Assembly (NCBI GenBank): GCA_030280995.1
Contig: JASXTE010000001.1
Span: 15,521,106-15,585,105 of the forward strand
Length of the DNA stretch: 64,000 nucleotides
Direction: 5' to 3'
Source of the DNA: Hemileia vastatrix
Taxonomy: Eukaryota; Basidiomycota; Pucciniomycetes; Pucciniales; Zaghouaniaceae
Part shown: positions 28,501-36,442 of the stretch, piece by piece
Layout of the letters: every line of letters starts with the position of its first letter
Numbering within the stretch: position 1 is the stretch's first letter
The notes under the pieces: generated by a model
What the model was told of the DNA's origin: nothing
The model's input: only the letters and a program-made list of their open reading frames with translations
Databases searched by the model: none
Position numbers and translations under genes: made by a program

Positions 28501-29635
28501 AGCCCATTTTCACCATATTTTTCCCCCTTTCCTATTTTCCTATCCAGGTTATCCTTTCCCTCCTAATTATCAAATTTTCAAAATGACTCTATCTAACTTC
28601 ACTGCTTCTTGTGACTAAGCCTGTGATTACTGTTCCTTTACCCATCAAGAGGGCACCTACTTCTATAACCAGAAAACATATACCTGCAACAGGGCCTGTT
28701 TCAACTGCTTTGAAAAGAAGAGAAAAAACTCTGGCCTGAAGTATGGCTCATTCCCCCTTCCTGCTGCCAGATTTTCCTTTCATTTCAAGCCTTCTACTTC
28801 TTCTCCAAAATCATCCACCTCAAAAGTTTCTAATCCTTTCACACCATCAGATTTTTTAAATATTCCTTCTGACTCTGAGTCTCTGGGTCCACCTCATTCT
28901 GCTCTTTATGCTTCTCCTTTTCTCCAATCAAGACTCTCTTACATCATCCCTAGAACTCCCACTGCTTCAAAAGCAATGTTGAATCCATCTAAATTAGTCC
29001 TAGATTTTTCTCCTTCTCCTTCTTCTTTCTCTCACCTCCTATTCAGAGCCTATTCCTCCTCAACCTAAATTTAGCAGCCCTCATTGTCTTTCTTCTTCAT
29101 CAAAAAGACCCATATCTCCTAGTCCTCTAATAATTTGCCATAAGAAAAGAAATATTTCAATAGAGAATGGATCACCAATCCCTGCTCCTTTCAGAGACAT
29201 CCTAACTTTCCTAAAACCACCCTCATATCACAACATTAAAAATACCTACTCTTCCCTTCTTGAATAAAAAATTCTGTCAAGCCCATCTTTAAATCTTGAG
29301 ATTGACACAGTTGACTCTAGTAAGTAATTAATATTTTCATTATTATTTTAAATTTTATCTCTTGACTTTTATTGATGACCTGATCTAGATTCTTGAGGAT
29401 CCCATTATTCTCTGTATGCTTATTTCATCCCTGATCCAGAACTTACTTCAGCTATGGTGAAATGTAATGAGGTCGCTCAACAATTATATTATATTTTCAA
29501 ATTTAACATGGCCCACTACAAAGACTATTTGCCAAAAGATTGTGCAGAAGTATTTTCAATAGAAAAGTTTTGAAATGTAACTTTAAAATGGCCACTTGGC
29601 TTGAACATAAACAACATTTTCAATTTGAGGATATT

Positions 29636-29690
29636 AGGGGGTGTCATTTCTGGCAAATCTGCACTTAACTTAAGTGCAGATTTCAAACCA
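29636..29690 (+). repeat. Left end of H5 with internal palindrome
   Basis: The 18-bp outer end AGGGGGTGTCA..TCTGGC is followed by AAATCTGCACTTAA-C-TTAAGTGCAGATTT (29655-29683), a perfect 14-bp stem around one base. The right end has a matching palindrome with CCGC for CTGC. Confidence 0.85.
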
Positions 29691-29992
29691 AATCAGCACT
29701 TAAATTTTGCAAAAAAGTCATTTATTTCAAAAATGGGTGTCAGTTATGACCTCAAATCAGCACTTTTTTTTGGTTTTTTTTCACAACCACATGTTGGCCA
29801 CAAAACATCCCTTCCTTTCTTACCCCATCCCTGTCACATGTGACACACTGACCTTCCTCGCTACCTACCCATCAATCCTCGGCACACACCCCTTCCTGAC
29901 ATTTTCAAAATGTTGACCAGGCATTTTTACATTCTTATTTACTTATTTCTTCTACCTCTTAATATTTTTTCTTGTTATGTGCCAGTTTCATA

Positions 29993-31320
29993 ATGCCTCC
30001 CAGACATTCCAAATCTCAAAAGGTAACTCAAAAATCTGCTTTGTCACAAAAGTCTCCTCGTAAAGCAAGCCCTACACCTGAAAAATCAAAGTCAGGTTCA
30101 GGTCAGCTTAAAAAGGATGATTATCTCATCATAATCAACTTCCTTAAAATAAAATCAAATTTTGAAACATGTTTTGGATGTGAAAAGTCCACTCGTATTG
30201 GACGTCCACCTTCTTCAAAGGTTAATGGCTACTTATTGATGGCCAATGAAGTAAGGAAGAAAACAAGGGGGAGAATTGATATCAATCCTAAACAAATGAA
30301 GGAGGGATTTAAAAGTTACCAATCAAAATATAAAAAGGCTCATCATGCTGCAAATGAAACTTGCTTTGGTATTGACAATGATGAGTTGGAGATTGGAATT
30401 ACTACTGTTTCTGAAAAGCTCAATGTCATGTGTCCTTTCTATGAGGAAATGGATAATCTTTTTGGCTTCCAAGTTGATGTAAACCCTTGGTTTCTACACA
30501 ATACCACTAAGGATATACCCTCTGGATCCAAACCTTCCTATAATCCTCCTGACACACCTTTACTTGAAAGAAATCAATCCCCTCTACCTTCTAACAATAG
30601 TTCAGCTGAAGATGATCCCGACTATCAAGAAGAACAATTATATTGCAGCAGATCTGAATCCTCAGAGGCCCAAAATTTAAATGTATGTTTACTTTTTGTT
30701 TTTTCTTCAATTCTTCTCTGAATTTCTCTTTCTTTCTAGTCTCCTCCTACTCAAACTCAATCTCCATTAAATAATCTCAATTCTGGAAATGTGAATCCCA
30801 CTTTAGAAGCTGCTTTAGATGAACTTCCTGAAGCCTCTTGTTCAAACTCCAAACTAAAGCGTCGAGCCTCAACTTCAATGAACTTGAACCATCTATTAAA
30901 ACGTGGTAATTCTTCAACAAGCTCATTTGGCTCCCTTGAGGATTATTTTGCAAAAAAAAGATATAAGTAAGATTCATTTACTATATATCTTAATCATTAA
31001 CTCATTTGTTTATTTATTTCAATTTAATTTTCTCAGAAAAATCAACTATTGCAAAAAATTCCCTTGACTTTGAGAAGATGAGGTTTGATAATATGCTAAG
31101 AAAGATCAGCAAGCCTTAGATTTGGAAGAAAAAAAAATTGAGGCAGAGCAGATGGAAAAAGTAAATGAGCGTCAATTTCAAGGAGAAATGGCTACTTGTG
31201 AATTGGAAAAACAAGAGAGTTTTTAAAAAAAGATTTCATTATGGAATGTGTAAAAAATGGCCAATCTTATGAGGACATTAAAAATTACTTGACCTTTTCA
31301 ATTGATAAATTGTTTTTCTA
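29993..31320 (+). pseudogene. Myb/SANT-like Harbinger accessory protein (H5)
   Basis: Best copy of this protein. Start ATG at 29993 (MPPRHSKSQ), in the same place relative to the element end as in H1 and H3. Residues 1-40 are basic and serine-rich. About 41-115 form the Myb/SANT-like DNA-binding region (KKDDYLIIINFLKIKSN; SSKVNGYLLMANEVRKKT; NPKQMKEGFKSYQSKYKKA), then ITTVSEKLNVMCPFYEEM, a proline-rich acidic linker, a GT-AG intron at 30683-30739 and exon 2 ending KRGNSSTSSFGSLEDYFAKK. A second intron (30967-31036) leads to a coiled coil (QALDLEEKKIEAEQ) that is open only after a frame change, so the C-terminus is broken. Expected to help the transposase bind the element ends. Confidence 0.75.
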
Positions 31321-31549
31321 GTTAATTTAATTTTGTTTGATTTCTTTTTGGTAATATTTTCTTATATGCTGGCTTATCAAAGGTCTTGAATATAGTACAT
31401 TATTTTTGACAAATTTTTGAAATTATCATACATTTTTTCTATCTTTAAATTCAATTCAATAAGTTTGCCTATACTTTTATTTTGACAAAAATTTGAAAAT
31501 ATAATAAAAATTTTCTATCTTTACTTTCAAGTAAATAAGTTTGCTTATC

Positions 31550-31990
31550 TAAATTTTTCTAAGTCATCAATTTCACATTTCAGATTTAAAAAATTGGCAA
31601 TGCCCTCCCCTGTATTTTATTGAAACAAGGGGTGGGTACCACCAAATTTTTCTAAGTCATCAATTTCACATGTCAGATTTAAAAAATTGGCGATACCCTC
31701 CCCTGCATTTTATTGAAGTAAAGGGTGAAAGTCATCAAAATTTAATATAATTACATAAATTAATTATTATATAAATAAGATATGTCAAATTTACTACTTT
31801 TAAAGTAATGAAAATTCCTCATACCAAAATGCAGATCAAGTCTAGAAACTAGGTTTGGGACTTTCCACAGTTATAGGCTAGAGGAACCCCATGAAGAAAA
31901 TTAATGTTATCAGGATTACCTTTTATACAACACAAGGTCGTTGGCCCATTACTTTAATTTCATAAATTGAAATATCATATTTATTTATTA
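31550..31990. other. Conserved Harbinger intergenic block (H5)
   Basis: Two ~95-bp tandem units (31557-31745), each with CTAAGTCATCAATTTCACAT and a CCCTCCCCT...AGGGGTGGG-type hairpin, then the ~150-bp block with TTTGGGACTTTCCACAGTTA and ATACAACACAAGG. It lies between the 3' ends of the Myb and oxygenase genes. The first 230 bp after the Myb gene (31321-31550) show nothing. Confidence 0.6.
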
Positions 31991-32129
31991 AAAATTTATG
32001 GAAGAATATTAAATATTTGGTGACTCTACAAATCCCCATACTTTTTAGATCTACCTAAAGAATTTTTAAATTTATTACCTTTTTCTTCTTTTTTTAACTT
32101 GTTTATTTGTTGGATTAACTTTTGACTGA

Positions 32130-33000
32130 TCTGGAAAGAGAAACTGAAATGCGTGAAGTCTTGACAAGATTCCAAACCTGGAGGAGCCTTTGTGGTTTGG
32201 TGATTATCGTAAGAAGAATTCCAAACTGTTTTGATGATTCCACTTCCTAATCCAAAATCGATTATACATCTACGATCTGGGAAATATAATCCATGTCCTT
32301 TAATTTTTGCAGGTGACGTAATAGGATGTCCAGTGATAGGATTAATATATGTGAAAATTCTGTAAGTGAGGTAATTCGCATCATTCGAGTCGGTGTGAAT
32401 TCAGTTATGAAATCCAGAATGAGTGATTATAACATTTGAAAATATTAGATAATCACTGCTAATATCTTCCCATTCAGAGTCGCACCAATTTGGTATTCCA
32501 AGTCTTGTAGCAACTTCATGATTTTTTTCAAAAGCTTTATTGAAGAGTTTTTTAAGTCAAAGAGCAAGAAATGAATTAAATGAAGGTAGAGTATTCCATT
32601 TTCGAAAATCTTTATCTAATTAAGCTTTAGATAAAGATCTGAGTAAAGAATATATGCCTATATTATTTAAATTCAGTAAAATGATATTAAAAAATACAGA
32701 AAAAATTTTAAACATACCAAGAAAAAAACCTTTATCAAACCCTGGTCTCCATCCAATACCAATCATGATTCCACCCAACAAAATCTTAGTCCTTAAAGGT
32801 AAGCAAACCAAAGCCATTTGAAAAAGTGTTATGATGAGATCTCAGAGTTGATTAAATGATTCATCTTTTAAACCATTAAAAGAATGGTTTTTGTAAATAA
32901 ATTGAGGTTTGAAAGTATTATTAATAACAGCTTTAACTTCATCACCTCCAGTTTCAGTTAAATAATGTATATTTTCGGGTAACGTTTTCAAATATTGTTT
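32130..33000 (-). pseudogene. 2OG-Fe(II) (TET/JBP-like) oxygenase in Harbinger H5
   Basis: Read on the minus strand from about 33000: VCLPLRTKILLGGIMIGIGW, RPGFDKGFF, a probable intron, KWNTLPSFNSFL, ATRLGIPNWCDSEWEDIS, SNVIITHSGFHN, a stop, IHTDSNDANYLTYRIFTYIN, KIKGHGLYFPDRRCIIDFG, KTVWNSSYDNHQTTKAPPG and FSFQISQKLIQQ near 32130. HTD is the expected HxD metal site, the His of DNHQT the distal ligand, and the order fits the TET-like 2OG-Fe(II) oxygenases expanded in basidiomycetes (oxidation of 5-methylcytosine or similar in the TET/JBP group; substrate here unknown). Four or more stops make this copy dead, but the domain is readable end to end. It faces the Myb gene tail to tail. Fold assignment is by motif only. 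Confidence 0.65.
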
Positions 33001-33425
33001 TTTTTAACTTTAGTTTTATAGTATTTTATTTTTGAGATATGGCCAAATATTTGATCCAAGTGAATTTTTTTTTAAATTTCTTTTATTTTGATACTGTTCA
33101 TTTTTGTCAATGTTTTAGATGATTATTGAAAAGAAGTTGAATTTGAAGATGATAATGAAGTTAAAGAAGATGAGAGTGAGGTAAGTGGTGAATCTGAAGT
33201 TAAAGATATGTATTTTTCTACTTAAAAATTTTTTACTTTTCAAACACCCAAAATTATACATTAAAAAAACTCACTTAGTTTAAATTAAAAAAATTAAAAT
33301 CCTCAAAAGACTTATAATAAATTTTTTTATTTCACTTGAACTTGATGAATATTTTTCTTTAAAATTAAAAAATTCAAAAAAAAATTCAAAAAAAAAATTC
33401 AAAAATCTGGGAATTTTTTTTTATC
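33000..33425. other. AT-rich spacer in H5
   Basis: Between the oxygenase and the C-rich arm. A short acidic stretch (FEDDNEVKEDESEVSGESE, near 33140-33210, + strand) is open but isolated and follows a stop; I do not call it a gene. Confidence 0.4.
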
Positions 33426-34100
33426 ACTTCCCCATTCCCCTTAATTCCCTGCTCCAAACCCCTCTCCCACCTCCCCAAATCCCTTGTACAAACCCCCCCT
33501 CCAACCTATTCACATCCCCTTTTAAACCCCTCCAAACCCCCTTCCAAAACCGCCTTCAATCTGCCCCAAACCCCCCTCCAAACCCCCCTCCAAATCCCCT
33601 CCAAACCCCCCTCCAAATCACCCTCCAAACCCCCCTCCAAACCCCCCTCCAAACCCCCCTTCAATCCCCCCCAAACCCCCTCCAATCCCCCCCCCAAGGC
33701 CTTCTTCAATCCACCTATATTCCCCCCCCTCCAACCCTGCTAACACCCCTAACCTCCCCCTCCTATCTCCCCTCCAAAGCCCCCCAATCCCCCCTAAAAA
33801 CCCCCCTACCCCCCCCCCCCCCCCAAAGTCACTTAACAATTCACTAACGAATTGTTAAGGAACGTTTAAGGGGGGGGTATGGGGGTTTTGAGGGTGGGGA
33901 TTGGGGGGGGTTTTGAGGGGGATAGGAGGGGGGATAAGAGGGGGTGCTAGGAAAGGATTGAAGGGGGGTTTGGAAGAGGGGTTGAAGGGGGTGATTGGGA
34001 GAGTTTGGAGGGGGGATTCAGGGGATTTGGAGGGGTGATTCAGAGGTTTTGGAGGGGGGTTGGAGAGGAATGAGGGGAGGAAATGAGGACACAAACAAGG
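33425..34100. repeat. Strand-asymmetric inverted array: C-rich arm, hairpin, G-rich arm
   Basis: From 33425 to 33830 the + strand is built of short CCCCCTCCAAAC-like units and a C-only run. From 33860 to 34090 it is the reverse, GGGGGTTTGGAGAGG-like units. The centre is a perfect hairpin, CTTAACAATTC (33832-33842) and GAATTGTTAAG (33849-33859), with a 6-nt loop. The G arm has many runs of four or more G, so quadruplexes on one strand of each arm are possible. Open frames here are repeat artefacts. Confidence 0.85.
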
Positions 34101-34280
34101 GGGAGAAAGGGAGAGATGAGACTAAAGAGGGAGAAAAGGGAGCTTAGAGTGAGCCAAGGAGGGTAAATAAGGCAGCCAAAAGGGGGGAAACGGGGAAGTA
34201 TCCATTCCAAGGAGAGGGTAAAGGTGGGAAAAAGCCCAGGCCAAGGGGGGATAAAGAATAGGATAAATGAGAGAAAAGAG

Positions 34281-34304
34281 GGAGAGAGAGAGAGAGAGAG
34301 AGAG
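34281..34304. repeat. (GA)n microsatellite
   Basis: About 12 GA units inside H5, followed at 34330-34420 by A-rich sequence with short AAAACC and AAAAAC motifs. No gene between 34100 and 34727. Confidence 0.9.
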
Positions 34305-34727
34305 AAAAAGGTTAATTTTACCTATAAATTTAAAAAAAACCACTTACAAAAAAACAAAAAAAAAAAAGAGCAAAAACCCAAAAAACCAAAAAAACAAAAA
34401 AAAATTAGCAAAAAATCAAGTAAAAAAGATATAATGACTTACCTGGAGAGATGAGTTGAGAAGAAAAAGATTTGTGAAATTGTTTGAGTGATGTAGGAAG
34501 AGAGGAGAAAACGAATATGAGTGAAGAAAAAAAAGAGAGTGACTGAAAAAATTGCGTCAGCTGAAAATATGTGATTTCATGTTGAGTTGATGAAAGAAAA
34601 CACAGAGAGATAAAAAAAATAAGACTTTAACAGCAAATTCAAAAACCAAAAAAATATGCAAAAAAATTTACCATTCTCAGTGAATAACACATGCAAATTG
34701 ATCATTTGAAGATAATGAAAAAAAAAA

Positions 34728-35993
34728 TTAAAATTGTGTTGAAAAATGTTGGAGTGTTATTCGAAGAATTTTTGCCCTTATACTATTTGATTGAGAAATA
34801 GAAGTGTTGGATATAGTCGGAGGTGAATCAACTTGTTCTTCTTCATACAGCTCTAACCATTGATCTTTGAGGTCAGCAAGTAGGTTATGAAGTATAGTGC
34901 AACACAGAATCCAGTTTATCACCGCCTCCATTTGAGATTTATTTCTAAGAGGACTTCTTAATTCCCTTAAACTAGAAAAATGGCCTTTCAAGATTCCAAT
35001 AGAATGTTCAATACGGACTCTTGACTTTGCCAAATGATTGTTGAACTTGGCATTTTGACTGTCTTCTGAAGCTGCTCCCCGAAAAGCATGAAGTACATAC
35101 TTTCCATTCACATAAGCAGAATCTGAAAGAAGATACTGATCTTCATCAAAGAATTTTTCAGGTTCATTTGAAATTTGAATTCTTTGGAAGACGTAGGAGT
35201 CATGACATGAGCCAGGATAGCCAGCGAAGAATGATATAAATTTTTTGTTTATGTCATATATAAGCTGAACAAAAATTGAATATCTATAAAGAAGATATAT
35301 TTGTTTGTGTTAGTTTCAAAGAGAATGAAAAGAGTTAAAAATAATCTACCTCTTTTTACGGTCAAAGTAATTGTTTTCATCTTGAGCAGGTTTCTGGCTC
35401 AAAGGAATAGTAGTACCATCAACAAAACCAATACATCCTGGGAAGCCCTCTGCTTGCATAACCTGAGTTGATTCAAGTCACTCTTCTTTTGTTGGCCAGG
35501 TGAGAAGTTGAGATTCCAAGGAGTTGATGGCAGTGATACATAGTTTGGTATAAGTGTTAACTGAACCATACCCTAAATCAAAGACATTTTCTAAACGTTT
35601 CAAAGCAGCTCCATTACCATTTGAACCCAAATGACATAGTGTGATGGCCAATTGAATTGAAGGATGTCGTTGTTCTTTTTGAGAATTATTGTGAAATATG
35701 GGTTGATCCTGAATAAGCTCACGCAATTTAAGGAAAAATTCCTGAGAAGTCCTGAACAGCTGTCTAAAACTGGGTGTAGATAGGTTAAGAAGTGTTTGGA
35801 TGGTGTACTTGGGGGTATGAAGTACTTGAGGCTTTCTGGGAAGAAGGTAAAATTTCGTGGCCATTTTTGATAAAAAGACAAAATCTTCTTCTAGATCAGA
35901 ATCAGAATCACAACCAGAGTCCAAGAGAAGTTCAAGAGCCATGAAAATCATTGCTTTATTTAATTTATCACGATTTGAAAGTGAGGAAGGCAT
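34728..35993 (-). pseudogene. PIF/Harbinger DDE transposase (H5), one stop codon
   Basis: Two exons on the minus strand, 35993-35350 and 35283-34728, joined across a 66-bp GT-AG intron (35284-35349), give exactly 400 codons. The acidic N-terminus (LLLDSGCDSDSDLEEDF) is followed by helical segments. The catalytic core is recognisable: first Asp in GFVDGTTIPL, second in YPGSCHDSYVFQR, Glu in SRVRIEHSIGILKGHF, then ILHNLL near the end. Length and motifs fit HARBI1-type transposases, which cut and paste elements with 3-bp target duplications. One in-frame TGA (35478-35480), in WPTKEE-stop-LEST, is the only lesion I see; a tryptophan codon is likely there in the family. The gene starts about 290 bp from the right end. 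Confidence 0.85.
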
Positions 35994-36218
35994 GACTCTT
36001 ATATGATATGATATGAAAATGTAAATGATGTACGATGTTTTGAGTTATGAATTGTTATGCTGGGGAGTGCTGCGTATGAATGGGATGATGCTGACAAATC
36101 AGAGAAATGGTACTTGATGGTGAAATCAGCTCTATTGGTTGAGAAAGTGCGGATTTGAGTGAAATAAGTGACTTATTTCATTTTGAAATCCACCAGTATT
36201 GAGGCTAGTGTGTTTTGG

Positions 36219-36279
36219 AAATCCGCACTTATTTAAGTGCGGATTTGTAAGTGCGGATTTGCCAGAGCTGACACCCCCT
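36219..36279 (-). repeat. Right end of H5 with internal palindrome
   Basis: AAATCCGCACTTA-TT-TAAGTGCGGATTT (36219-36246) then GTAAGTGCGGATTTGCCAGAGC and the outer end GACACCCCCT. The CCGCACTT half is repeated a third time. Matches the left end inverted, with a T-to-C change on both sides of the palindrome. Confidence 0.85.
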
Positions 36280-36442
36280 ATTGAAAGATTTAATAAAGCC
36301 TCTTCTGAAACCCTCACTGTGCCATCTTCATCAAAAGAGAAACTTCCTTAATTCTTCAGGCTCCTGCTATAAATTTAAAATAAACTAAAAAAACTATATA
36401 TATAAAATCCCAAAAACATAATACTACTATTTATATTATTTC

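What the first reader, a model, noticed from the sequence alone, without database searches (positions are those of the whole stretch)
29636..36279. Harbinger transposon carrying a TET/JBP-like 2OG-Fe(II) oxygenase as a third gene
H5 has exact ends, a 3-bp duplication, a Myb-like gene and a DDE transposase, and between them a minus-strand gene with HTD, a distal His, GIGWRPGFDKG and a C-terminal FSFQIS. TET/JBP expansions in basidiomycetes are known with KDZ transposons; pairing with a PIF/Harbinger transposase would be a different carrier. A mobile element bringing its own DNA-modification eraser could escape methylation silencing. The oxygenase motifs and position are seen; the anti-silencing role is inference.
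Basis: partly seen in the sequence, partly recalled or inferred. Interest (0 to 1): 0.9.

Follow-up and report, generated by a model that had tools for sequence, protein, structure and literature searches.

The report
Rust-fungus Harbinger transposon carrying TET gene
A jumping gene of what is probably a rust fungus carries, besides its two usual genes, a third for an enzyme of the kind that erases DNA methylation marks; such carriers were described in 2025, and this one is a distinct variant that differs in how it inserts and perhaps in its second protein.

Summary
The element is real: 29636-36279, 32-nt inverted ends, ATT on both sides, a Myb/SANT-like gene, a DDE_Tnp_4 transposase and between them a minus-strand Tet-like 2OG-Fe(II) oxygenase gene (PF20515, E=4.4e-9). 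The window copy is decayed. The oxygenase is resident in the family: 9 of 9 copies with both ends in one locus carry pieces of all three genes, and 6 of 6 elements of 5.7-6.9 kb, picked by size alone on one contig, carry it. One open relative (352 codons) was modelled; its fold matches CcTet, TET2 and CMD1. An empty site shows a 3-bp duplication (AWT).

The carrier is not new in kind. Kojima (2025, PMC12730594) described TET-bearing Harbingers (PHISTA) in rusts, with TA duplications and no Myb/SANT protein. This family differs in the first and perhaps in the second: a new variant.

The anti-silencing role stays inference. For it: CpG hypermutation (C>T 22.8% at CpG, 1.4% elsewhere), CpG-centred repeats only near the ends, long-term constraint (dN/dS 0.12-0.27). 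Against it: copies are no less CpG-decayed than a few other repeats, and a 3.7-kb derivative class spread with only an oxygenase relic.

The parts
29633..29635 (.). left target-site duplication ATT
   Evidence: 3-bp duplication shown by the empty site of copy L016 and by 19 of 20 end pairs
29636..36279 (.). whole transposon, 6644 bases, AGGGGGTGTCA...TGACACCCCCT
29636..29667 (+). left terminal inverted repeat
   Evidence: pair I13, 33 nt, 91% complementary, one flanking base included
29655..29683 (.). two subterminal 12-mers (AAATCCGCACTT / AAGTGCGGATTT type), both CpG-decayed here
29993..30682 (+). Myb/SANT-like gene, exon 1 (intron donor GT at 30683 read by eye)
30740..30970 (+). Myb/SANT-like gene, start of exon 2 (shorter here; open to 105-108 codons in several other copies)
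31551..31736 (.). two tandem 93-nt units downstream of the oxygenase gene, also found beside divergent oxygenase genes elsewhere in the genome
32023..33212 (-). Tet-like 2OG-Fe(II) oxygenase gene region, broken in this copy
   Evidence: limits approximate, by eye from open copies L025 and L021
32389..32397 (-). codons of the iron-binding H-T-D motif; the Asp codon lies on a CpG
32200..32202 (-). codon of the distal iron-binding His
33436..34080 (.). C-rich then G-rich low-complexity tract, inverted about 33842-33849, between oxygenase and transposase
34728..35309 (-). transposase, exon 2 (DDE_Tnp_4)
35350..35993 (-). transposase, exon 1 (limits approximate; frame interrupted in this copy)
36145..36260 (.). 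four subterminal 12-mers of the AAGTGCGGATTT type, all with CpG intact here
36248..36279 (-). right terminal inverted repeat
36280..36282 (.). right target-site duplication ATT

Best explanation
H5 is a decayed copy of a large PIF/Harbinger family, probably once autonomous, of a rust fungus (order Pucciniales inferred from protein relatives). The family carries three genes: a Myb/SANT-like, probably DNA-binding protein, a DDE transposase and a TET/JBP-like dioxygenase. Shown: the structure, the 3-bp AWT duplication, residence of the oxygenase in the family, its iron-binding residues, its fold by prediction, long-term protein constraint, and heavy CpG hypermutation of the copies. Inferred: the oxygenase oxidises 5-methylcytosine on the element, chiefly at the CpG-centred subterminal repeats and the gene promoters, so that transposase or Myb-like protein can bind and the genes are transcribed during a burst, and it slows C-to-T decay of the active source copies. 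It may act in trans on all elements with these ends.
Confidence: 0.58

Rival explanations
1. The oxygenase is a passenger: transposons of rusts capture and exchange this gene often, and it rides along without a role in transposition.
For: An element with these ends and no oxygenase match exists (L092); the 3.7-kb class spread with a relic; in L079 the cassette lies in the opposite orientation to the element ends, as if captured or inverted separately; within-family constraint is weak.
Against: dN/dS 0.12-0.27 between lineages, iron-binding His residues unbroken in readable copies, presence in all full-size elements examined. Derivatives may be served in trans.
Confidence: 0.24
2. The oxygenase modifies something else (6mA, thymine or RNA), and the effect on the element is through another mark or through the host.
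For: CcTet, the top Foldseek match, oxidises 6mA as well as 5mC, and CMD1, also matched, adds a glyceryl group to 5mC; both as stated in PMC12730594 section 3.4.
Against: The copies show mutation typical of methylated CpG, so 5mC is a substrate at hand. Nothing here bears on 6mA.
Confidence: 0.13
3. The oxygenase reached H5 as a separate insertion with its own boundaries.
For: Co-conservation of upstream sequence (34218-34666), gene and 93-nt repeats beside divergent copies suggests a movable cassette.
Against: The gene is present at the same place in 9 of 9 two-ended copies that match H5 at 91-94%; no inner duplication or terminal repeat around the gene stands out among the repeats listed (a capped list).
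Confidence: 0.03

Closest known systems
TET-bearing PHISTA/Harbinger transposons of rusts (Kojima 2025, PMC12730594)
   Same: Rust fungi, DDE transposase of the Harbinger superfamily, TET/JBP dioxygenase, a third protein, proposed anti-silencing role.
   Different: PHISTA makes TA duplications and its third protein lacks Myb/SANT; this family makes a 3-bp AWT duplication and has a weak but consistent Myb/SANT-like match.
Canonical Harbinger and Nuwa elements
   Same: 3-bp duplication, transposase plus Myb/SANT protein (as described by Kojima 2025).
   Different: No oxygenase in the two-gene layout; canonical target TWA (recalled), here AWT.
KDZ transposons with TET/JBP genes in basidiomycetes (Kyakuja, Dileera, Zisupton)
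   Same: DNA transposon carrying a TET/JBP gene in a basidiomycete.
   Different: Different transposase superfamily; 8-bp duplication reported for Zisupton-1_PGr.
VANDAL/VANC anti-silencing of Arabidopsis (search listing only, PMC10398659) and Spm TnpA of maize (recalled)
   Same: A transposon protein counters methylation of its own element; non-coding repeats involved.
   Different: VANC is not an oxygenase; here an enzyme of the TET fold is carried. Likeness in working only, no kinship claimed.

Membership tests
PIF/Harbinger superfamily | DDE transposase of the DDE_Tnp_4 type | tested here: met
   E=5.3e-23 in the window, 1.9e-24 in L012
PIF/Harbinger superfamily | Terminal inverted repeats with 3-bp duplication | tested here: met
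   the triplet is AWT, not the canonical TWA (recalled)
PIF/Harbinger superfamily | Second protein with Myb/SANT domain | tested here: inconclusive
   PF13837 in 18 of 18 members, best E=1.4e-4; 14.2-18.8 bits in the four seen, cut-off 27; model pLDDT 45 without a fold match at E<=0.001; no PDB sequence match
PHISTA (Kojima 2025) | TA target-site duplication | tested here: not met
   empty site has a single AAT; 19 of 20 end pairs share AWT
PHISTA (Kojima 2025) | Third protein without Myb/SANT domain | tested here: inconclusive
   weak but consistent Myb/SANT match
PHISTA (Kojima 2025) | Transposase clusters with PHISTA transposases | not testable with these tools
TET/JBP dioxygenases | Pfam Tet-like 2OG-Fe(II) oxygenase | tested here: met
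   window; L025
TET/JBP dioxygenases | HxD and distal His iron triad | tested here: met
   window and 17 other copies HTD (18 of 26 readable), 8 of 26 HTN; distal His 25 of 25
TET/JBP dioxygenases | Double-stranded beta-helix fold like TET | tested here: met
TET/JBP dioxygenases | Oxidation of 5-methylcytosine | not testable with these tools
   needs an enzyme assay

The most novel reading that the evidence does not exclude
A second, separate entry of TET into the Harbinger superfamily: an element that keeps the 3-bp duplication and a Myb/SANT partner and uses CpG-centred subterminal repeats as methylation-sensitive switches, which its own dioxygenase clears before transposition. The catalytic Asp codon itself sits on a CpG (15 of 26 readable copies show a CpG transition there, 8 of them turning Asp into Asn), so that decay of methylated DNA disarms the eraser directly.
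Probability: 0.25. Interest if true: 0.75.

Novelty: new variant of a known kind. Interest (0 to 1): 0.5.

Why it matters
Whether transposons use their own DNA-demethylation enzymes is an open question of genome defence. This family would give a high-copy natural test: about 8000 exact termini in one genome, full-size copies with open or broken oxygenases, CpG-marked ends, and derivatives without an intact gene, so methylation and spread could be compared by oxygenase status.

Tried and rejected

Counts and drops. The 20 end pairs are the first adjacent pairs on contig C2's list, one 1.5-kb pair left out unread; that list shows only the first 100 of about 8000 places. The six elements are the listed pairs of 5.7-6.9 kb (counted by eye); two larger ones (9.1 and 7.4 kb) were not read inside. 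Among nine copies with both ends in one locus the triplets agree in 8; L012 disagrees. Of four copies read across two loci three agree (L022/L034, L024/L036, L027/L038) and L026/L035 does not (CAT/AAT). L017, an irregular tandem, was left out. Besides L016, further joined flanks aligned across the site: L014 and L018 without a gap at 69-75% identity, L013 against L030 and L021 with gaps beyond the site, and L013 against L018 with a gap near it at 67%. score only their best candidates, so copy numbers are lower bounds. Selection tests are uncorrected for several tests; transposase exon 1 (omega 2.7) and the Myb-like gene (1.1) showed no constraint among shared variants, transposase exon 2 did (0.46, p=0.03). 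The dS values behind the nine ratios are high (1.2-2.4), so the ratios are rough; three pairs of close copies gave 0.48, 0.66 and 1.08. The CpG counts rest on 30 rows, six of them short pieces, with a low-complexity stretch masked.

Full report
What is there. The window lies at C26:15521106-15585105 of a 748-Mb assembly in 791 contigs. Between 29636 and 36279 is a complete DNA transposon. Its ends form inverted repeats of 33 nt with one flanking base, 91% complementary, flanked by ATT on both sides. Gene order: Myb/SANT-like gene (+, 29993-30970), Tet-like oxygenase (-, about 32023-33212), DDE transposase (-, about 34728-35993). PF20515 matches the oxygenase piece 32026-32400 at E=4.4e-9 and DDE_Tnp_4 the transposase at 5.3e-23. 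The Myb label is weak: PF13837 below cut-off in the four copies whose bits I saw (14.2-18.8 against 27), but in 18 of 18 members at E<=1, best 1.4e-4.

Is it more than chance. The terminus GGGGGTGTCANTTCTGGMAA is found 3959 times forward and 4035 times reverse in the genome, and never when read backwards. A search with the whole element found, besides H5, copies at 91-94% over most of its length; nine loci, H5 included, hold both ends in regular form (ends). All nine carry pieces of all three genes. The longest open oxygenase frames are 379 (L021), 352 (L025), 328 (L024) and 325 (L013) codons from stop to stop; L025 and L013 keep HTD, L021 and L024 have HTN. The window copy is broken, as is its transposase first exon.

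Is the oxygenase resident. To avoid choosing copies by likeness to H5, I took end pairs from the list for contig C2. The six of 5.7-6.9 kb all carry the oxygenase in the middle. A commoner class of about 3.7 kb, 95-98% identical among long matches, is represented by L079, read whole: it keeps the ends, the first transposase exon and an oxygenase 68% identical to that of L025, inverted relative to the ends. In seven copies of this class, L079 and 1.3-kb stretches of six more, only the C-terminal part of the oxygenase is matched (68-75%), six share one stop, and all seven keep HTD and the distal His: a relic. One 4.6-kb element, rearranged, has no oxygenase match (L092). So the gene belongs to the full-size family, and derivatives have lost, cut or relocated it. 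I found no clean two-gene element, but read few.

The duplication. PHISTA elements make TA duplications, and TA is also present at both ends here, so this had to be tested. Of 20 end pairs, 12 read AAT/AAT, 7 ATT/ATT and 1 is mixed (p about 1e-4 against independence). The decisive case is L016: the repeat into which it jumped has six more copies in the sequences at hand (four in this window), all aligned without a gap; five read CTCACAATACTTGG, a single AAT, and the sixth differs by substitutions. The duplication is three bases.

Signs of methylation. C>T (both strands) is 22.8% at CpG and 1.4% elsewhere, highest at TCG, 33%. Kojima 2025 notes TCG hypermutation in Pucciniomycotina, and passages of PMC12210899 report DNMT1 and DNMT5 in the 12 genomes studied. 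The ends carry the 12-mer AAGTGCGGATTT or its complement, with a CpG at its centre, or a CpG-decayed form: 55 times in ten elements and only within 400 bases of an end; 36 keep the CpG. If these are binding sites, methylation could block them and the oxygenase could free them; this is inference. For mPing of rice, a Harbinger-type element (recalled), immobility goes with higher methylation of its flanks (PMC2715021, abstract read). Against protection: the ratio of CpG loss to transversions is no lower in this family (29.7) than in six other repeat pairs of the window (20.5).

Comparison with what is known. Kojima 2025 (PMC12730594; abstract, sections 3.1 and 3.4, first part of the Discussion and figure legends read) reports TET genes in seven transposon lineages of rusts, including 15 Harbinger families named PHISTA, with TA duplications and a third protein without Myb/SANT. 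The listings of three searches of the paper library showed no other description of a TET-bearing Harbinger. The present family is therefore a new variant: same cargo and superfamily, another duplication, perhaps another partner protein. Whether its transposase falls inside the PHISTA branch could not be tested. The earlier report of TET/JBP expansions with KDZ transposons (Iyer et al. 2014) is known to me from memory and from Kojima's account.

Verdict. Observation confirmed; carrier already known in kind; anti-silencing plausible but untested, with evidence on both sides.

Noticed in passing
window 31551-31736; L001, L003, L004, L006, L008, L079, L092, L093: A 93-nt unit lies in tandem downstream of the oxygenase gene here and has two or three good copies in each of these other loci, as if gene and repeats travel as one cassette; it was not found at that length in L002, L005 and L007. 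Upstream sequence 34218-34666 is shared in part with L002 and L079.
   Followed up: partly
window 33436-34080: A C-rich tract turns into a G-rich tract about a short palindrome, between oxygenase and transposase; by eye a splice donor at about 34449 (minus strand) suggests that it lies in an intron of the oxygenase 5' part.
   Followed up: no
own genome, one search places; L079: A derivative class of about 3.7 kb (95-98% identical to L079) with the same ends, the first transposase exon and an oxygenase relic; by identity it looks younger than the full-size family. Cassette inverted in L079.
   Followed up: partly
own genome: 10849 first-look candidates for PF20515, 150 scored; a group of many hits (profile about 49-211) has a 218-codon open frame, most without stops, whose carrier I did not look at.
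   Followed up: no
L010:11-1222 (-): Next to one copy lies a 404-codon open frame of a related Harbinger transposase (65% and 48% to the two exons), nearest to Puccinia coronata PCASD_11644 at 51%.
   Followed up: no
window 32389-32397: The catalytic Asp codon sits on a CpG; 15 of 26 readable copies show a CpG transition there and 8 have lost the Asp.
   Followed up: yes
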